DNA from: Roseomonas rosulenta
Lineage (GTDB): Bacteria > Pseudomonadota > Alphaproteobacteria > Acetobacterales > Acetobacteraceae
DNA length: 64,000 nt
Reading direction: 5' to 3'
Assembly (NCBI RefSeq): GCF_016106005.1
Contig: NZ_JACADR010000004.1
Location: 1 to 64,000, forward strand
Below the pieces are notes generated by a model, which was not told where the DNA came from, searched no databases, and saw only the letters and a program-made list of their open reading frames with translations. The stretch's first letter is position 1; each line of letters opens with the position of its first letter. Positions 35,814 to 50,173 of this stretch are shown here, in pieces. The position numbers and the translations under genes were made by a program.

Positions 35814-36110
35814 ATGGCAGTCGACCTGCATTTCATCTGCAAGCACGGTGAAAACCACCGAAGGCTCGAGCTACAGCGCTACGAAACGGGCGATTGGGTC
35901 GTCAGCGACGCGACGGCAGACGAGGCGATAGGCGGCCGAGTCTATCTGCATGAGCGCCAAGACGAACCTGCGTGGCACGGCGGCACGATTCTCGGTTGGC
36001 GCGCCGCGGATGAACCGGAGCGCAAAGTCTTTACGTACGCGGTGGATGGGCCCTTTCGCATTCGGTGCTCGGGGGCTTGGGGCCGCGAGAAAGCGATAGT
36101 GCGACGGTAG
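35814..36110 (+). CDS. Hypothetical protein overlapping the end of the methyltransferase
   Basis: A 98-residue protein: HFICKHGENHRRLELQRYET, then GDWVVSDATADEAIGG and HGGTILGWRAADEPERKVFT. AAGGAGATACTCG precedes the ATG, so a real gene is likely. It converges with and overlaps by 80 bases the end of the methyltransferase gene on the other strand, which suggests that one of the two ends has been extended or altered. Function unknown. Confidence 0.55.
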   Translation: MAVDLHFICKHGENHRRLELQRYETGDWVVSDATADEAIGGRVYLHERQDEPAWHGGTILGWRAADEPERKVFTYAVDGPFRIRCSGAWGREKAIVRR

Positions 36111-37401
36111 TTCGAGGAAGGACGTTCAATCGTCTTGGCGTCCTGGGCTCGTTCAACCCGCGGGCGGCTGCCATGTCGTCGAAGGTCCGATCCTCGCCTG
36201 CAAGCAGCGCTGCCTTCCCGGTCAGCGCCTGCCAGCGCAGCACGGCGACATCCACGTATTGCGCATCAATCTCCATCGCGTAGCAGCGCCGCGCGGTGGT
36301 CTCCGCCGCGATGATGGTGGTGCCGCTGCCCGAGAAGGGCTCGTAGACCGCGTCGCCCACCGCGCTGTTGTTGACGATCGGCCGCCGCATGCACTCGACC
36401 GGCTTCTGCGTGCCGTGGATCGTTTCGGCATCCTCGTCGCCGCCGAAGCCGATCGACCACAGCGTTGCCTGGTCGCGCGCCCCCTGCCAATGGCCCGTCG
36501 CCCCTTTGCGGACGGCATAGAGGCAGGGCTCGTGCTGCCAGTGGTAGTCGCCGCGCCCGAGTACGAAGCGCGGCTTGGCCCAGATGATCTGGCTGCGGAT
36601 CGCGAAGCCCGCCGCCTCGAGGCTGTCGATCACCGTGCGCGCATGCACGCCGGCATGCCAGACATAGGCGACGTCGCCGGGGAACAGGGCCCAAGCCTCG
36701 CGCCAGTCAGCGCGGTCATCGTTGGCGACCTTACCCGTACGAGTGGTGGCGGACACGCCGGCCTCGTTGCGCCAGGACGGGTCGTACTCCACTCCATAAG
36801 GCGGATCGCTCGCCATCAGGTGCGGCTTCGCGCCGTCGAGCAGCCGGGCGACGTCCGCGACGTTGGTGGCGTCACCGCACAGCAGCCGATGACGGCCGAG
36901 GATCCACAGATCACCTGGACGCGACACTGGGACCGCGGGGGGCTCCGGCGCCGGCGCGTCGGGATCTGGACCGCCGGTCTCGTCCTCCGCGGGGCCGGCC
37001 AGCAGCCGGTCGAGCGTCATGGCATCGAAGCCGATCAGCCCGAGGTCGAACTCGGCATCGAGCAGCCCGCGCAGCTCGCCGGCCAGCAATCCCTCGTCCC
37101 AGGTGGAATTCAGCGCCAGCTGGTTGTCCGCCAGCCGATAGGCCTTGGCCTGCGCCTCGGTGAGATGCCCGAGCCGGATGGCGGGGATGCTAGCGAGGCC
37201 CAGCGCCTTCGCCGCCAGCACGCGGCCGTGGCCGGCGATCAGCACGCCCGCATCATCGATCAGCACCGGTACGTTGAAGCCGAACTCGCGCATCGACGCC
37301 GCCAGCTGCTGCACCTGCGCCTCGGGGTGCTGCCGGGCATTGGCCGCATAGGGCGCCAGCGCCGCCGTCGGCAGCATCTCGACGCGGAGGTCAGGCTGCA
37401 T
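36031..37401 (-). CDS. ParB-domain / N6-adenine-type DNA methyltransferase fusion
   Basis: A 456-residue protein. Residues 1-100 are a ParB/sulfiredoxin-like domain (LAPYAANARQHPEAQVQQLA, IAGHGRVLAAKALGL). Then a DNA methyltransferase: LICGD-like LLCGDATNVADVARLL, the catalytic ASDPPYGVEYDPSW (motif IV DPPY), and EPFSGSGTTIIAAETTARRC (SAM motif I). DPPY is the form of N6-adenine or N4-cytosine enzymes of the beta class. It may protect phage DNA from host restriction or regulate. A paralogue follows on its 5' side. The last 35 residues look unlike the family and overlap the opposite gene. Confidence 0.85.
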   Translation of the reverse strand: MQPDLRVEMLPTAALAPYAANARQHPEAQVQQLAASMREFGFNVPVLIDDAGVLIAGHGRVLAAKALGLASIPAIRLGHLTEAQAKAYRLADNQLALNSTWDEGLLAGELRGLLDAEFDLGLIGFDAMTLDRLLAGPAEDETGGPDPDAPAPEPPAVPVSRPGDLWILGRHRLLCGDATNVADVARLLDGAKPHLMASDPPYGVEYDPSWRNEAGVSATTRTGKVANDDRADWREAWALFPGDVAYVWHAGVHARTVIDSLEAAGFAIRSQIIWAKPRFVLGRGDYHWQHEPCLYAVRKGATGHWQGARDQATLWSIGFGGDEDAETIHGTQKPVECMRRPIVNNSAVGDAVYEPFSGSGTTIIAAETTARRCYAMEIDAQYVDVAVLRWQALTGKAALLAGEDRTFDDMAAARGLNEPRTPRRLNVLPRTTVALSLSRGPKPPSTECERAHPPRT

Positions 37402-38845
37402 TGGCCATCTCCGCCGCCCGCGTCGCAGCGACCGCGTCGTAGTCGCGCCCGTCGCCGTCCAGTTTGACCTTCAGCTCCGGGAACACCATCCGGTAGCGCG
37501 CGATGGCGAGGTCGACATAGGCCGGCGCGAGCTCGATCGCTCTGACCTTTCGCCCCGTGCGCTGGCCAGCCAGGATCGTCGTACCGGAACCGGCGAAGGG
37601 CTCGAAAACCACGTCGCCGAGATTGGCGTAGCTCTGCAGCAGCAGTTCAGGCAGGGCGACCGGGAATACCGCCGGGTGCTCGGTCTCGATGCCGCGCCCC
37701 TTGTGCCGCGTGATGCGCAGCACGCTGTCCGGGATGCGCATCTCCTGCACCGGCAGGCCGGCATGGGTGTACGCCTTCACCTCCCCATCCGCCGCGCGCA
37801 ACCCGCTGCCCTTGTTCTCTGTCCCCGCCCACTTGCAGGGGATGATTTTGTTCGGCTGGCGGGACTTCCGGTTGAAGTGGAACACCAGCTCGAAGGCGGG
37901 CGCCAGCCGACCGTTCCAGTCGCCCGGCAGGCCGGGCCCTTGGTCCCAGGCGTACAGCCCGAAGCGGCGCCAGCCCTGCGCGCGCATCCATTCCACCCAG
38001 CCCTGCCAATAGGGCCGCCACTCCCCGTCACGGTGGATCAGGCCGAGGTTCACCAGCGCCTGGCCGTCCTCGGCGAGGGCCGCCGGCAGGTGCTGGAACA
38101 CGCCCTGCATCAGCGCATCCCAATCCGAGATGCCGCCGGTGGTGTAGGCGCGCTGGTTGCCGTAGGGCGGGCTGGTGAACAGCAGCGCCGCACGATCCGC
38201 GCCGAGCACGCGGGCCACGCAGGCGGCGTCGGTGCTGTCGCCGCAGAGCAGGCGGTGCTCGCCCAGCAGCCAGAGGTCGCCCAGGCGGGCGACCGCCTGG
38301 CGCGGCGGCACCGGCTCGGCGTCGGCGGGATCCTCGTCCCCCTCAGTCTCACCACCGACACCGATGCCGGCACCGCCGCTGGATCCGCTCCCAGGCTCCC
38401 CCGCGTCCGAAACCGCCACCTCGGCGAGGTCGCCGAGCAGCCCCGCCACCTCGTCGGCGCCGAAGGCGGTCAGGCCGAGGTCGAAGCCCTCGGAGCGCAG
38501 CTCGAACAGCTCGCCCTTGAGCAGGTCTGCGTCCCAGCCGGCGTTCAGCGTCAGCTTGTTGTCGGCCAGCGCGTAGGCGCGCTTGTCGGACTCCGACCAG
38601 CCGCGCGCGACCATGGCCGGCACATCCAGCAGCCCGAGCGCCTTGGCGGCGAGCACACGGCCATGGCCAGCGATCAGCTGCCCGGCTTCGTCCACCAGCA
38701 CTGGCACGGTCCAGCCCCACTCGCGGATGGCGGCGGCGATCTGCGCCACCTGCGCCTCGCTGTGGGTGCGCGCATTGCGGGCGTAGGGCAGCAGCGAGGC
38801 CACCAGACGCCGCTCGACCGTATCGGCCGGCCAGGCTCGCTGCAT
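37391..38845 (-). CDS. ParB-domain / N4-cytosine-type DNA methyltransferase fusion
   Basis: A 484-residue protein. ParB-like domain at 1-110 (LVASLLPYARNARTHSEAQV, LIAGHGRVLAAKALGLLDVP), a Gly/Ser/acidic linker, then a methyltransferase with LLFTSPPYGNQRAYTTGG (SPPY, motif IV) and EPFAGSGTTILAGQRTGR (motif I). SPPY is typical of N4-cytosine enzymes, against DPPY in the neighbour. An 11-base overlap joins the two genes. The ATG at 38845 is the first that puts the ParB fold at the N-terminus. Confidence 0.85.
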   Translation of the reverse strand: MQRAWPADTVERRLVASLLPYARNARTHSEAQVAQIAAAIREWGWTVPVLVDEAGQLIAGHGRVLAAKALGLLDVPAMVARGWSESDKRAYALADNKLTLNAGWDADLLKGELFELRSEGFDLGLTAFGADEVAGLLGDLAEVAVSDAGEPGSGSSGGAGIGVGGETEGDEDPADAEPVPPRQAVARLGDLWLLGEHRLLCGDSTDAACVARVLGADRAALLFTSPPYGNQRAYTTGGISDWDALMQGVFQHLPAALAEDGQALVNLGLIHRDGEWRPYWQGWVEWMRAQGWRRFGLYAWDQGPGLPGDWNGRLAPAFELVFHFNRKSRQPNKIIPCKWAGTENKGSGLRAADGEVKAYTHAGLPVQEMRIPDSVLRITRHKGRGIETEHPAVFPVALPELLLQSYANLGDVVFEPFAGSGTTILAGQRTGRKVRAIELAPAYVDLAIARYRMVFPELKVKLDGDGRDYDAVAATRAAEMANAA

Positions 38846-38962
38846 GCGTGAACTCCGCCTTTTTAGGGAGGGAAAAATCCCTGCGTGTCCCCCGTCGCGG
38901 AGGGGCGCCCCAAGGCGCCAGAGATCCGATCCCCCGCTCCCCATCAGCAGGGGGGCGCGGGG

Positions 38963-41029: not shown

Positions 41030-41246
41030 GCCCCTGCCCTCCATTGCGCCGCCCCCAGCGGCGATTGGCTTCGTTGATGATCGCCTGGCGAAGCCAGGGG
41101 TCCGTGATCTCGTCGACCGGGATCGCGACGACGCCGAGCCGATGCCAGGCCGCGGCCCGCATCGCGTTCACATCCGCGTCGGTGGTCGGGCTGCGCGCAA
41201 GGTCGAGCGAGGACCGTGGCGGCTGCGGAGCACCGGGCAGGGTCAT
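41019..41246 (-). CDS. Hypothetical small phage protein
   Basis: A 75-residue protein: TDADVNAMRAAAWHRLGVVA, IPVDEITDPWLRQAIINEAN, then RRWGRRNG. Starts on the stop of the RuvC-like gene (ATGA) and overlaps the next gene by 11 bases, so it is within the replication operon. No function known. Confidence 0.6.
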   Translation of the reverse strand: MTLPGAPQPPRSSLDLARSPTTDADVNAMRAAAWHRLGVVAIPVDEITDPWLRQAIINEANRRWGRRNGGQGHGR

Positions 41247-41791
41247 GCCACACCTCCCCCAGCCTCAATGGCCCAGAGCAGCAGGGCGATGGCATCCGCC
41301 TCGTTGTCGTCGGTCGGTGCGAAGCCACGGGCGCGGATGACCGCGACCATGGCGGCTTTGTCCGCATTGCCGCGGCCTGTCGCGAAGCGCTTGATGGTCG
41401 CCACGGGCACCCCCTCGTAGGCGACGCTGCGTTCCTCGCACCAGGCGGAGAGGTGCGCGAGGAAGCCGCCATAGATGTGGGCGGCATCGGTGCCGGCATG
41501 GGCGCGGACTTCCTCGAAGACGACGCGCCCGATGCCGTCGGTGACGCGCTGCATTTCGTCGAGCCAGCCGCGGAACCGCAGGAAGCGCATGCCGCCGCCT
41601 TCGAAGCGTGATGGCCGGAACGTCATGGTGCCGGAGGTGATGCCGTCTTCGCCGAGCCGAACCGCCCAGCCCGTGGTGGTGCCGAGGTCGAGGGCGAGGA
41701 TGGTGGCGCCGCGCGCGGCGCCGTCGGCGACTGGCGCGGCGAGCGTACCGGTTGCGCCTCCCGCGGGCATGGAGAGAGTCGTGGAAGCCAT
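41243..41791 (-). CDS. RuvC-like Holliday junction resolvase
   Basis: About 182 residues. RNase-H-fold residues are in ATILALDLGTTTGWAVRLG (first Asp), RVVFEEVRAHAG (Glu), and FAPTDDNEADAIALLLWAIE (Asp pair). This is the pattern of the crossover junction endodeoxyribonuclease RuvC family in phages. It cuts branched DNA before packaging. The ATG at 41791 is preferred; the 40 codons upstream read as Pro/Arg-rich noise. Confidence 0.8.
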   Translation of the reverse strand: MASTTLSMPAGGATGTLAAPVADGAARGATILALDLGTTTGWAVRLGEDGITSGTMTFRPSRFEGGGMRFLRFRGWLDEMQRVTDGIGRVVFEEVRAHAGTDAAHIYGGFLAHLSAWCEERSVAYEGVPVATIKRFATGRGNADKAAMVAVIRARGFAPTDDNEADAIALLLWAIEAGGGVA

Positions 41792-41921
41792 GGTGTTCTC
41801 CGAGAGGGGATGTTCGTGGTGAGGGCGGCGACGGCGCGGTTCTTGGCGGAGCTCGCCGTCGCTGCCCGGCAGAGCGAAGTGACACGCGCTCGCGGGGGGC
41901 CGGTCGGCCAATTATTTGTTT

Positions 41922-42020
41922 CGGTGACGCAAGTGACACAGGCTCCGGTAAACACCGTCACGCGCGTGCGCGTGCGCGCGTGAACGGGTATTTCCTGGGA
42001 CTGTGTCACTTGCGTCACCG
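41922..42020. repeat. Perfect 20-bp inverted repeat with nested alternating tract, candidate origin
   Basis: CGGTGACGCAAGTGACACAG at 41922-41941 is repeated exactly as its reverse complement at 42001-42020, 59 bases apart. Between them 41958-41983 has 9-bp arms TCACGCGCG/CGCGCGTGA around GC-alternating purine-pyrimidine sequence, which favours Z-DNA or a cruciform. Each 20-bp arm contains two direct GTGAC motifs. It lies between the RuvC-like gene and the primase-helicase gene. This fits a replication origin or a replication-protein operator. Confidence 0.6.
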
Positions 42021-42066
42021 GAATGACCTCTGACGCCGCCTGGGTGCCGTGCATGGTCGGCACCCC

Positions 42067-44463
42067 TCAGAACTGCAGGAGGTCGGTGGGCACGAGCGGA
42101 GCCCGCACGCGGAGGCCGCGGAATGCCCGCGCGCGCCTGTCACGATCGCGCTCGAAGTTCCGGTTCAACAGGTTGTCCGAGAACCGCCGGACGGACCCGA
42201 CGTATTCGTGGTTGGCTTCCGCCCATGCCTTCCAGGACGCGAAGAGCGTGGCCGTGGGCTCGACAGAGCTCGGCACACGCTCGCAGCATTCCTCCATCCA
42301 GCGCCCGAGAGCGTCCTCCGCCTCGAAGTATTCCTCGGTGGCGGCCAGCACCGTGGCCGGCGCGCGCAGCCCTGCGCGCTGCCACTCGAGGCAGCCCTGC
42401 AGGGCCCAGGCGAGGATGCCGTCGCGCTCGGCCAGCAGCCGCTCCGGCAGGCGCTTGTCGCGCTGGGCCGGCGGGATGGTGACCGTGAAGGGCACCATGT
42501 GCAGCCGGCGCCGCATAGCCTCGTCGACGTTGCGGATGGCGGGCTTATGGTTGCCGGCGACCAGCAGCTTGAACTGCGGGGTGAACTCGAAGAAGTCCTG
42601 CCGCATGAAGCGCGCGGTGATGCGGTCGCCGCCGGTCAGCGCCTTGAGCTTGCTCTCCGCCCAGCGGCTGCCCTGCTCGGTCTCGATGGAGGTGACGATG
42701 CGGGCGCCGCGCAGCCCCGCCATGTCGGTCGGGTGGCGTTCCCCGGTGGTCGCCATGAACATGTCCATCGGCGCGACGGTGGCGTAGTCGCCGAGAATGG
42801 CGGTCAGCGTGTTGGCGAAGACCGACTTCCCGTTCGCCCCCGTGCCGTAGAGGAAGAACAGCGCGTGCTCGGTGGTCACACCGGTCAGGCAGTAGCCGAC
42901 GACGCGGCGGAGGTAGGCCTGCAGCTCGGCGTCGCCGCCGGTGACCTGCGCCAGGAAGGCGAGCCAGGTCGGGCAATCGCCCGTGGGCGCCGCGGTGGTA
43001 ATCTTCGTCATGTGCAGGGCACGGTCGTGCGGCGCGACGGTGCCGGCGCGCAGGTCGACCACCCCGGCGGGCGTGTTCAGCAGCCAGGGATCGCGATCCC
43101 AGACCTCGGTGGTGGTGGCGTGGCGGCGATCGGCGCGTGCCAGCCGCTCGACCGCGGCGACGGTCGAGGCCTGCGACAGCTTCGCGCGCACCTTGGTGCT
43201 GTTGGCCCGGTTCGCCGCCGTCCGGCAGATCCGCCGCGCCAGGTCGAAGGCGCGCAGCGTTCCCTCGCGCTCCCAGCGCGTGCCGGTCCAGGTCAGCCAG
43301 GCGCCCCACAGGGCGACGTGGCGCCAATCCTCGGCATGGAGGTCGCTGAAGGCGGCGGCCAGCGCGTCCTCGGTGAACTCCACGGGGATGGGCTCGTCAT
43401 CGCCGCCACCGGCGTCACCGGAGCCATCCCCCGCTGCCGCGGCAGTGTCCTGGGCGGCGGCCTCCGCGCCCTGCCGCGCCGCGTCGCGCCGCCACAGCTG
43501 CTCGGCCTCGTGGCGCAGCCGGTCCTCCGGCCAGGGCGGATCGATGCGCGCGGTGTTGTAGGCGAGGATCTCCTGCCAGGCCTGGGCGGGGGTGGTGTGG
43601 CCCTCGCGGCAGCGGCGGATCCAGTAGCCGATCACCCGCGACAGCGCGTCGAAGCGCGTGGTGCCGTCGACGCCGCCCTCGCGGATGCGCTGCCCGAACA
43701 GGGCGGTGACATCACCGCGCAGTTCCCCGGCGCCGTTGAAGTCCATTGGATCGGTGGGCGCGACGTCGGGCAGCACGCCGGTTTCGCCCGGCATAGGCGG
43801 CATGGCGACGACCGCCTCGGCGAGGTCGGTCAGGTCACGATCGGGGCCGCCCGAGGCGAGCACCTCCACCAGGCGGGGCGTGCCCTTGCCGTGCACCGTG
43901 CCGGCGACACGGATGGGCTGGTGCGCAGACCGGAAGGCGGGATCTCCGCCGACCTTGACCGCGATGGCGTGCCGCAGCCGGCAGACGGTGGCGAGGTCGG
44001 GCCCCTCGGCGGGTTCCGTCAGCCGCCAGTAGAGGTGCAGCTTGCGCAGGCCCTCCGCCGTCACGCCGCCGGAGGCGACCTCGAGGCTCGGCACGCCGAG
44101 ATGCTGCAGCAGGTGCGCCCGCTTGGCGGCGATGTCGCCATGGTCGAGATCGACCAGCACGGTCTGCATCTGGACCACATGCTCGGCCCGCGCCTCGCCC
44201 GGCGCCGCCACCGTGCCGGGGATGACGTAGAGGGCCATGCCGCTGTCCGCTGCCCAGCGCGCCTGTACCGTCAGCTTGGCGGCCAGCTCGCCATCGGCGG
44301 GGAGAAACGGCGTGTGCGGCGCGCGGTCCGGCCCGCCTTTCTCGGCGAGGGCGCGGACGGCGACGAAGCCCTCGCAATAGCCGAACAGCGCCTCGGCATA
44401 GGCCGCGACCATGGCGGCGTTGGGCACGATGGGCATGGGCGGCTCCACCTCCGCCGCACTCAT
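42067..44463 (-). CDS. P4-type primase-helicase (phage/plasmid primase)
   Basis: About 798 residues. The N-terminal part has a RepB/D5-type primase-like region (VLVDLDHGDIAAKRAHLL, then YWRLTEPAEGPDLATVCRLR). The C-terminal P4-family SF3 helicase has Walker A FLYGTGANGKSVFANTL at about residue 541 and downstream LVAGNHKPAIRNVDEAMRRR. Such proteins prime and unwind at phage or satellite origins. ATG at 44463 overlaps the nuclease stop (ATGA). The inverted repeat at 41922 lies just beyond its stop. Confidence 0.85.
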   Translation of the reverse strand: MSAAEVEPPMPIVPNAAMVAAYAEALFGYCEGFVAVRALAEKGGPDRAPHTPFLPADGELAAKLTVQARWAADSGMALYVIPGTVAAPGEARAEHVVQMQTVLVDLDHGDIAAKRAHLLQHLGVPSLEVASGGVTAEGLRKLHLYWRLTEPAEGPDLATVCRLRHAIAVKVGGDPAFRSAHQPIRVAGTVHGKGTPRLVEVLASGGPDRDLTDLAEAVVAMPPMPGETGVLPDVAPTDPMDFNGAGELRGDVTALFGQRIREGGVDGTTRFDALSRVIGYWIRRCREGHTTPAQAWQEILAYNTARIDPPWPEDRLRHEAEQLWRRDAARQGAEAAAQDTAAAAGDGSGDAGGGDDEPIPVEFTEDALAAAFSDLHAEDWRHVALWGAWLTWTGTRWEREGTLRAFDLARRICRTAANRANSTKVRAKLSQASTVAAVERLARADRRHATTTEVWDRDPWLLNTPAGVVDLRAGTVAPHDRALHMTKITTAAPTGDCPTWLAFLAQVTGGDAELQAYLRRVVGYCLTGVTTEHALFFLYGTGANGKSVFANTLTAILGDYATVAPMDMFMATTGERHPTDMAGLRGARIVTSIETEQGSRWAESKLKALTGGDRITARFMRQDFFEFTPQFKLLVAGNHKPAIRNVDEAMRRRLHMVPFTVTIPPAQRDKRLPERLLAERDGILAWALQGCLEWQRAGLRAPATVLAATEEYFEAEDALGRWMEECCERVPSSVEPTATLFASWKAWAEANHEYVGSVRRFSDNLLNRNFERDRDRRARAFRGLRVRAPLVPTDLLQF

Positions 44464-45224
44464 GCCCAGCACCGCGACTGCCAGGGGCAACGGGCGCATT
44501 CGAAGTGTCCCGGCTCGGCCGAGATCCGCGGCAGCCATTCGCCGGCATCGCAGGCCTGCAGGACACGGACCGCCTTGTCGCTGGTCGCCTGCGCCAGCGC
44601 CGCGTCGAACGGCACCAGCTCGTGGTGCAGTTCGGCGGTGTCCTTGTTCACCGCGGTGAACAGCGCCGGGGTTTGGGCGAGGCCCATATAGGCCTGGTAG
44701 AGCGCGATCTGCGCGGCGTAGACCGGCTTGGCGGCGGCGACCCCGCGGCGGACGATCTCCTTCCAGTTCCGCGCGTTGGCCGACTTGCACTCCCACAGCG
44801 CGGGCGCGGCGACCAGGCTCGCGGCCTCGGGCGGCGCTCCCACCACGACGCCGTCGATGTGCCCCTGGATCCTTCCATTGGCGACGGAGAAGCCGAACTG
44901 CTCGCCGTCACGCCCGCGGGTCCGGATGTCGAAGCCGGCACGGCGCAGCCAGCCGATCGCCAGGTCCTCGAAGACATGCCCCACCGCGAAGATCCGCAGC
45001 GTCTGCCCCGAGAAGCCGGTGTCGGGATCGCGCGGCAGGTCGAGGTGCTCGTACTGCAGGCGGCGGGCGCAGGGATCGCCGAGGCGCGAGCCGCCGAGAT
45101 AGTCGCGCCGCGGCCGGGAGCCGTTCTCCGCCACCAGCGCGATGTCGATCAGCGCGTTGATCGCCTCGGCGGTGGTGGGTGGCTTCGGACGGTGGTTGAA
45201 GTCAAGCGGGATGACGTTGGTCAC
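44460..45224 (-). CDS. PD-(D/E)XK nuclease, Cas4-like
   Basis: A 254-residue protein. The active site includes IQGHIDGVVVG (Asp) and ALWECKSANARNW (E-x-K). A Cys in GDPCARRLQYEH and a C-terminal FECARCPWQSRCW give the four-Cys layout of iron-sulfur Cas4/AddB nucleases. It probably processes DNA ends for recombination or replication. In the phage replication operon. Confidence 0.8.
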   Translation of the reverse strand: MTNVIPLDFNHRPKPPTTAEAINALIDIALVAENGSRPRRDYLGGSRLGDPCARRLQYEHLDLPRDPDTGFSGQTLRIFAVGHVFEDLAIGWLRRAGFDIRTRGRDGEQFGFSVANGRIQGHIDGVVVGAPPEAASLVAAPALWECKSANARNWKEIVRRGVAAAKPVYAAQIALYQAYMGLAQTPALFTAVNKDTAELHHELVPFDAALAQATSDKAVRVLQACDAGEWLPRISAEPGHFECARCPWQSRCWA

Positions 45225-49339: not shown

Positions 49340-49543
49340 TCACTGGCCACCCTCCTGAAGCTGAGCCTTCTCGAAGGCTTCAACGTCATCGAGGCGGTAG
49401 ACGACGCGGCCGCCGAGCTTGAGGTAGCGCGGCCCCTGCTTGAGGAAGCGCCACCTTTCGAGCGTCCGCGCGCTGAGATCCCAGCGCGTCGCGAGCTGCC
49501 GCTGATTGAGATGAGTGTCAGCTCGCGCCGTCGTCGTGCGCAT
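49340..49543 (-). CDS. AlpA/excisionase-like HTH protein
   Basis: About 67 residues. Helix-turn-helix of the MerR/HTH_17 type: LNQRQLATRWDLSARTLERW, then LGGRVVYRLDDVEAFEKA. Such small proteins act as excisionases or as activators. ATG at 49543 preferred to the TTG upstream. Between the recombination operon and the sigma-like gene. Confidence 0.75.
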   Translation of the reverse strand: MRTTTARADTHLNQRQLATRWDLSARTLERWRFLKQGPRYLKLGGRVVYRLDDVEAFEKAQLQEGGQ

Positions 49544-49582
49544 CGCCAAGGGCTCCGTCCGATGATGCGTGTCCGTTGCGGG

Positions 49583-50173
49583 TCACGTACCGGCGCGGTT
49601 GGCGAAGTGTCGGGGTCCGGCGAGGTACCCGCCGAGCCCTGCTGCGATGGCCTGGCGCTTGAGGCGCTTCGCGTTCTCGTAGACGGAGGAGCGGTGCAGG
49701 CCGGCCGCCTCGGTGGCGGCAGCGACATTCTCCGACAGCAGGATGTCGCAGCAGCGCCGCAGCGCGGGGGTCAACGATGCGATAAAGCGCGCGACGTCGA
49801 GCCGCAGGGCGTGGGAGTCGCCCGGCGCGGCATCCTCCGGATCGGCGGGCAGCATTTCCGCGATCGTGATGTCGCTGCCCGGCACCACCGGCATGTCGAG
49901 GGGCACCGTCGCCCGCTCCGCCGCGCGGCGGGCCGTCGGACTGGTGAGGGTGGCCACGCGATGCGCGATGACGCGGTGCGCGAAGGTACGGAACGAGGCG
50001 CGTGCCGGATCGAAGGCCTCCATCCGACACCAGAGATCAAGCACCAGATCCTGCTCGAGGTCCTGGGCGTCCATGCCGGGCACGGCATGCTGACGGGCCA
50101 GGCGGCGCGCCGTCGCGCGAATGTGCTTGAGCACGCGGGGGTCGATCCCGTCGTACCGATTGAGATGCTCCAT
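49583..50173 (-). CDS. ECF-type RNA polymerase sigma factor-like protein
   Basis: About 196 residues. It has a sigma region 2-like part (RYDGIDPRVLKHIRATARRL, then DLEQDLVLDLWCRMEAFDPA, ASFRTFAHRVIAHRVATL) and a region 4-like HTH (VAAATEAAGLHRSSVYENAK). DLEQDLVLDLW matches the family. In alphaproteobacterial prophages such a factor may turn on late genes. No anti-sigma gene is next to it. Confidence 0.7.
   Translation of the reverse strand: MEHLNRYDGIDPRVLKHIRATARRLARQHAVPGMDAQDLEQDLVLDLWCRMEAFDPARASFRTFAHRVIAHRVATLTSPTARRAAERATVPLDMPVVPGSDITIAEMLPADPEDAAPGDSHALRLDVARFIASLTPALRRCCDILLSENVAAATEAAGLHRSSVYENAKRLKRQAIAAGLGGYLAGPRHFANRAGT

What the first reader, a model, noticed from the sequence alone, without database searches (positions are those of the whole stretch)
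41922..42020. Perfect 20-bp inverted repeat with nested alternating GC tract in front of the primase gene
Two exact 20-bp arms, each with two GTGAC motifs, surround a 59-base spacer with its own 9-bp palindromic arms and Z-DNA-prone sequence. Such order is too precise for chance and fits an origin, a cruciform, or a site for the ParB-like or other DNA-binding proteins.
Basis: partly seen in the sequence, partly recalled or inferred. Interest (0 to 1): 0.62.

Follow-up and report, generated by a model that had tools for sequence, protein, structure and literature searches.

The report
Prophage stem-loop replication origin with iterons
The perfect inverted repeat just after a prophage primase gene is very probably the phage's replication start site, built from four copies of a 9-letter word that the phage's own primase-helicase seems to read, a design shared with an archaeal plasmid whose stem-loop is known to be needed for replication.

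Summary
The repeat is real: exact 20-bp arms (41922-41941, 42001-42020), 59-nt spacer, concentric 9-bp inner palindrome. It scores 20.7; the best of 12 shuffles of the whole window scored 16.8. It lies downstream of the primase-helicase gene (minus strand), 46 nt after the stop, before a RuvC-like resolvase.

Near relatives keep the arms paired while the sequence changes: all 19 pairs show double changes, only 2 of 437 cells are G-U, and elsewhere mismatches show no G-U excess. Selection is therefore on DNA. In 145 of 165 non-redundant primase loci (17.9 expected) the best palindrome of the locus follows the primase stop.

Anatomy and gene order match the ~100-nt stem-loop essential for replication of archaeal plasmid pRN1. 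New here: each arm is a tandem pair of ~9-bp iterons (lag-9 identity 0.52 versus 0.27, z=13.6, 42 arm families), pRN1 included. In Bordetella-BIP-1-type primases the iteron core tracks two residues of the C-terminal winged helix (34/37 distant pairs with the same dipeptide share the core, versus 6/287).

Best reading: the prophage replication origin, bound by its AEP-SF3-winged-helix primase-helicase. Not a terminator or ParB site. Initiation here is inferred, not shown.

The parts
42001..42020 (-). primase-proximal arm of the stem (20 bp) = iteron pair GTGACGCAA (42010-42018) and GTGACACAG (42001-42009)
   Evidence: sequence; period-9 repeat general in 42 arm families
41922..41941 (+). distal arm (20 bp), exact inverted copy = iteron pair GTGACGCAA (41924-41932) and GTGACACAG (41933-41941)
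   Evidence: sequence
41942..42000 (.). 59-nt central spacer (loop), itself dyad-symmetric around about 41971
   Evidence: concentric inner palindrome in 90% of arm families
41958..41983 (.). inner palindrome TCACGCGCG-8-CGCGCGTGA in an alternating purine-pyrimidine tract
   Evidence: I22; conserved in near relatives
41919..42023 (.). whole imperfect dyad = proposed replication origin
   Evidence: covariation
42067..44796 (-). primase-helicase: N-terminal AEP PrimPol, D5_N/SF3 helicase, C-terminal winged helix; proposed initiator
42070..42300 (-). C-terminal winged-helix region of the primase-helicase (about aa 833-909); proposed iteron reader
   Evidence: predicted bHHbb, pLDDT mostly 75-90; RFX-DBD-like Foldseek match; specificity dipeptide mapped in the homologous segment of BIP-1-type proteins
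41243..41791 (-). RuvC-like Holliday-junction resolvase downstream of the element (start by inspection)
   Evidence: phrog_159 E=1.6e-26
41911..41939 (-). promoter-like GTGTCA-17-AATAAT overlapping the distal arm; possible promoter of the resolvase gene
   Evidence: 1 found, 0.0 expected; consensus match only

Best explanation
The element is the prophage's replication origin. Inferred sequence of events: the C-terminal winged helix of the adjacent primase-helicase binds the four 9-bp iterons, two direct copies in each arm, the arms facing each other. This places two SF3 helicase hexamers head to head around the 59-bp dyad-symmetric centre, which is melted or extruded as a hairpin, and the N-terminal AEP domain makes the first primers on the exposed strands. 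Shown here: anatomy, linkage to the gene, DNA-level conservation of the pairing, iteron periodicity, and correlation of winged-helix residues with iteron sequence in the BIP-1-type relatives. Inferred: binding and initiation in this prophage, hexamer loading, extrusion.
For: The best palindrome of the whole locus lies within -30..+1000 nt of the primase stop in 145/165 non-redundant loci found by protein, 17.9 expected. Covariation: 19/19 pairs with changes on both sides, 95.4% paired, 0/500 shuffles. No G-U excess over A-C (15 vs 15). 9-bp iterons in arms, z=13.6. Winged-helix dipeptide and iteron core match in 34/37 distant pairs vs 6/287, 0/2000 permutations; the two columns rank first and second of the whole protein. 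72/79 loci found by arm sequence alone adjoin an SF3/D5 gene. N-terminal AEP fold: S-2L PrimPol Z 21.1, RepB' Z 17. pRN1 (PMC4234260, PMC3869888): a 100-nt stem-loop with 21-nt stem and 58-nt loop, 54 bp after the prim-pol gene, is needed for replication, works when moved, and a stem mutation is rescued by restoring symmetry. SaPI/PICI origins lie just downstream of rep, with iterons recognised by the Rep C-terminus (PMC7581432, PMC6092414).
Against: No replication or binding experiment exists for this prophage, and in pRN1 the start site itself was not mapped. GC skew in the window shows no turn at the element. One clade (L005, L008, L009, L020, L030) has degenerate arms. The residue-iteron link was strong in BIP-1-type primases and only modest in the window's own group (winged-helix windows rank 2nd, 4th, 6th and 7th of 223). 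The arm sets were chosen by palindrome score, which inflates pairing figures.
Confidence: 0.85

Rival explanations
1. Iterons only: the element is an initiator-binding dyad, and the perfect pairing of the arms is a by-product of four copies of one site being kept alike (or of palindrome-templated correction); no hairpin or cruciform forms. This is a rival to the hairpin step, not to the origin reading.
For: 9-bp direct repeats inside arms. In the related Cch2 helicase, deleting direct repeats abolished binding and deleting inverted repeats did not (PMC7581432). A clade with degenerate arms keeps TGAC motifs.
Against: Where the two iterons of an arm differ, the arms still pair in 241 of 272 cases. 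Inner palindromes are concentric in 90% of families. A pRN1 stem mutation was rescued by restoring stem symmetry (PMC4234260).
Confidence: 0.35
2. Operator: the primase-helicase binds the element to repress the downstream RuvC-like gene, whose promoter overlaps the distal arm; not an origin, or origin and operator both.
For: Promoter-like match inside the distal arm. In most relatives the element lies inside the 5' end of the resolvase reading frame.
Against: Element found with no resolvase gene next to it, upstream of the primase (L109, L140, L157), on plasmids and in pRN1, where it is needed for replication.
Confidence: 0.1
3. RNA hairpin in the primase-resolvase transcript (terminator, processing or attenuation signal).
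For: RNA of the region folds far better than shuffles (z=-9.08).
Against: No U tract and no terminator found; no Rfam match; mismatches show no G-U excess over A-C and only 2 of 437 cells are G-U; the element also occurs upstream of or 3 kb from the primase gene.
Confidence: 0.04
4. Double-strand origin of rolling-circle replication with a nick site in the loop, as one group proposed for pRN1.
For: PMC3869888 argues this for pRN1; loop deletions of 3 bp were not tolerated there.
Against: The window's primase-helicase has AEP, SF3 and winged-helix parts and no nicking domain was matched; loop sequence varies widely between relatives.
Confidence: 0.03

Closest known systems
pRN1 stem-loop origin (Sulfolobus; PMC4234260, PMC3869888)
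   Same: about 100 nt, about 20-bp stem, 58-59-nt loop, about 50 nt after the stop of an AEP-SF3-winged-helix gene; structure kept while sequence changes; pRN1's own arm also hides a 9-bp repeat (TGTCCATAG TGTCCAACT)
   Different: here a bacterial prophage with a GC-rich loop; iterons were not recognised in pRN1 (the paper states it lacks iteron structure)
Bordetella phage BIP-1/BPP-1 stem-loop (noted in PMC4234260)
   Same: 22-bp perfect arms, 60-nt loop, arm = TTGCCTCGT twice
   Different: 468 nt after the primase stop; different iteron
SaPI/PICI replication origins (PMC6092414, PMC7581432)
   Same: just downstream of an SF3 Rep gene; two iteron sets flank a central region; Rep C-terminus recognises them; the SaPI5 primase-helicase is a sequence relative (7ola, E=3e-7)
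P4 alpha protein with ori/crr iterons
   Same: helicase-primase with C-terminal winged helix that binds repeats at its origin (described in PMC4234260)
   Different: TOPRIM primase instead of AEP; no stem-loop described

Membership tests
pRN1-type stem-loop origin of AEP-SF3 replicons | about 100-nt inverted repeat, about 20-bp stem, about 58-nt loop | tested here: met
   20-bp arms, 59-nt spacer
pRN1-type stem-loop origin of AEP-SF3 replicons | lies close downstream of the replication protein gene | tested here: met
   46 nt after the stop; 145/165 relatives
pRN1-type stem-loop origin of AEP-SF3 replicons | structure conserved while sequence is not | tested here: met
   19/19 pairs with double changes
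pRN1-type stem-loop origin of AEP-SF3 replicons | replication protein has AEP, SF3 helicase and C-terminal winged helix | tested here: met
   AEP; D5_N/TIGR01613; winged helix predicted (helicase core modelled poorly)
pRN1-type stem-loop origin of AEP-SF3 replicons | required in cis for replication and movable | not testable with these tools
   needs an experiment; natural relocation seen in L109, L140, L157
SaPI/PICI-type iteron origin | two sets of iterons flank a melting region, downstream of rep | tested here: met
   two pairs of 9-bp iterons flank 59 bp
SaPI/PICI-type iteron origin | AT-rich centre | tested here: not met
   centre is GC-rich alternating sequence
P4 alpha/crr system | TOPRIM-type primase domain | tested here: not met
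   N-terminus folds as AEP
intrinsic terminator | GC-rich stem followed by a T run | tested here: not met
   0 found
ParB/parS partition site | site bound by a ParB encoded nearby, usually in several copies | tested here: inconclusive
   exact arm pair unique in genome; the only ParB_N match among the ten window proteins scanned is a sub-threshold one in a DNA methylase
rolling-circle double-strand origin | nicking Rep endonuclease in the replicon | tested here: inconclusive
   none matched in the primase-helicase; whole prophage not surveyed

The most novel reading that the evidence does not exclude
Stem-loop origins of AEP-SF3 replicons and iteron origins of PICI type are one class across archaea, phages, plasmids and islands: each arm is a tandem pair of ~9-bp iterons read by a two-residue code in the wing of the initiator's winged helix, and all four copies change in concert with that dipeptide, giving fast-evolving replicon specificity (incompatibility types).
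Probability: 0.55. Interest if true: 0.75.

Novelty: new member of a known kind. Interest (0 to 1): 0.62.

Why it matters
It gives a likely replication origin, findable from sequence alone, to a large group of phages and plasmids that carry this kind of primase-helicase. It reinterprets the pRN1 stem-loop, described as lacking iterons, as iteron pairs, and so links it to the PICI origins. The residue-to-base correspondence makes initiator specificity directly testable by swapping two residues, and predicts which co-resident phages and plasmids can cross-replicate.

Tried and rejected
Rfam search of the window: no match. GC skew of the window: drift, no turn at the element. Terminator scan: none. 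Translation of the 9-nt period as codons was considered: the frame through the element is open into the resolvase in most alphaproteobacterial relatives but not in the window, and the element is non-coding in pRN1, so coding does not explain it. Viral-contig search with the Parageobacillus primase gave one relative. AlphaFold of the helicase part was poor except the winged helix (pLDDT 55 overall). Foldseek/VIA did not list pRN1's own prim-pol among the top rows; not taken as evidence. In the window's own group the residue-iteron correlation did not single out the winged helix.

Full report
What is there. The minus strand carries a replication module: Sak4-like annealing protein, helicase, Cas4-like exonuclease, primase-helicase (42067-44796), then the element, then a RuvC-like resolvase. 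The inverted repeat is exact over 20 bp per arm with a 59-nt spacer and a concentric inner palindrome. It is the strongest palindrome of its span in the window, above the best of 12 dinucleotide shuffles of the full 64 kb (20.7 vs 16.8). The arm occurs nowhere else in the window; within two mismatches the held genome has one other single site.

Relatives. Eighty viral contigs encode relatives of the primase at 64-92% identity. Most have an inverted repeat of about 90-115 nt span within about 50 nt after the primase stop, with arms that differ in sequence between phages but pair within each. On 23 distinct elements every one of the 19 outer pairs shows changes on both sides, 95.4% of cells pair, 91 cells are double changes against one single-sided wobble change, and no shuffle or slid control comes near on pairing or covariation. 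Across 78 elements at under 90% identity, G-U and A-C mismatches are equally frequent (15 and 15 in the first 16 pairs). An RNA hairpin would favour G-U on the transcribed strand, so the constraint is most simply on DNA.

Linkage. A scan with the commonest arm form, blind to genes, returned 53 viral and 26 genome stretches, mostly Alphaproteobacteria, with a few MAG records labelled Acidobacteria, Planctomycetota, Synergistaceae and Actinomycetes. In 72 of 79 the element begins within -120..+500 nt of the stop of an SF3/D5 gene. Of the seven others, two are cut by the contig or locus end, one overlaps the gene, three have the element upstream of the primase or several kb away (L109, L140, L157), and one adjoins a split primase plus an ATPase gene, by inspection (L156). 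Starting instead from proteins, including phage Aminay, Karkharias and BIP-1 queries, the best palindrome of the whole locus lies within 1 kb after the primase stop in 145 of 165 non-redundant loci against 17.9 expected. Some plasmids with this protein show it too (Methylobacterium plasmids, a Bacillus plasmid), others do not (Thermaerobacter, Planctomyces, Singulisphaera, Parageobacillus).

Precedent. In the archaeal plasmid pRN1 a 100-nt stem-loop with a 21-nt stem and 58-nt loop, 54 bp after the prim-pol/SF3 gene, is essential, works when moved, and one stem mutation was rescued by restoring symmetry (PMC4234260); a second group found the same region essential (PMC3869888). The first paper also noted such a stem-loop in Bordetella phage BIP-1. 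Neither mapped initiation directly. The pRN1, pRN2 and BIP-1 sequences were fetched and the elements found again as the top palindrome of each stretch.

New observation: iterons inside the stem. In 42 arm families under 80% identity, self-identity at a shift of 9 bases is 0.52 against 0.27 in shuffles (z=13.6); 41 of 42 have their best shift at 8-10. pRN1 (TGTCCATAG TGTCCAACT), BIP-1 (TTGCCTCGT twice) and the window (GTGACGCAA GTGACACAG) all fit. PMC4234260 states that pRN1 lacks iteron structure. The literature library gave no prior report of iterons in these stems, though most subscription papers are not held. PICI origins are described as two iteron sets flanking an AT-rich region downstream of rep, recognised by the Rep C-terminus (PMC6092414, PMC7581432), which is the same logic.

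Who reads them. In BIP-1-type primases the core of the iteron is GNNNCG, and it changes between phages whose primases are about 80-95% identical. The protein's C-terminal winged helix is hypervariable at one spot. Pairs of primases under 75% identical that share two residues there share the triplet in 34 of 37 cases; pairs that differ share it in 6 of 287; no permutation of 2000 reached this; the two columns rank first and second in mutual information over the whole protein. KD goes with GCGACG, RD with GCGTCG, MN with GGAACG, QN/QH with GTACCG. By the predicted order of secondary-structure elements they fall in the wing strand after the recognition helix, and the Foldseek list for the window's C-terminal part includes the RFX DNA-binding domain (E=0.026, a weak match). 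The permutation treats loci as independent, but the restriction to distant pairs limits the effect of shared descent. In the window's own group the signal is present but not specific.

The protein. The N-terminal half folds as an AEP PrimPol, closest to cyanophage S-2L PrimPol (Z 21.1, rmsd 2.5, 183 aligned) and plasmid RepB' (Z 17). The C-terminal half matches D5_N, TIGR01613 and, by sequence profile, the SaPI5 primase-helicase and ASFV C962R. The helicase core was modelled poorly; the winged helix at pLDDT mostly 75-90.

Open points. Whether the arms pair in the cell is unsettled: arms stay complementary even where their two iterons differ (241 of 272, a set selected by palindrome score), and inner palindromes are concentric in 90% of families, but in the related Cch2 the inverted repeats were dispensable for binding. 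A promoter-like sequence in the distal arm would allow autoregulation of the resolvase gene as well.

Noticed in passing
L032, L017, L085 and other alphaproteobacterial relatives, just after the primase stop: The stem-loop lies inside the 5' end of the RuvC-like resolvase reading frame (39 of 52 frames open with an ATG upstream, 18 of them without a later start), giving a VTDVTD...SVTSVT N-terminus; in the window the frame is not shared.
   Followed up: partly
window 36031-37401 and 37391-38944 (-): Two adjacent proteins that look like ParB_N-like N-terminus plus DNA methylase domain, a probable phage modification pair (domain search run on the first only).
   Followed up: partly
window 49583-50173 (-): Sigma-70 region 2 protein inside the prophage early region, next to a small HTH_17-like protein (49340-49549).
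   Followed up: no
L160 5507-5590 and 5605-5700; L207, L240: Some phages (Arthrobacter phage Karkharias and others) appear to carry two strong stem-loops; in Karkharias they are in tandem after the primase.
   Followed up: no
L156 1734-4369 and 4759-4859: A contig labelled Synergistaceae with the same stem-loop beside a separate primase-like gene and an ATPase gene ending in a winged-helix-like tail (by inspection).
   Followed up: partly
L109 1579-1661 and L140 3297-3379: Identical element about 3 kb upstream of the primase, separated by inserted genes: natural relocation.
   Followed up: partly
L005, L008, L009, L020, L030, first 150 nt after the primase stop: A clade with degenerate arms: TGAC motifs kept, some as three copies per side at 8-10-bp spacing, pairing imperfect.
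   Followed up: partly
window 41877-41885: A further single AAGTGACAC, 37 bp outside the distal arm; could be a lone iteron or chance.
   Followed up: no
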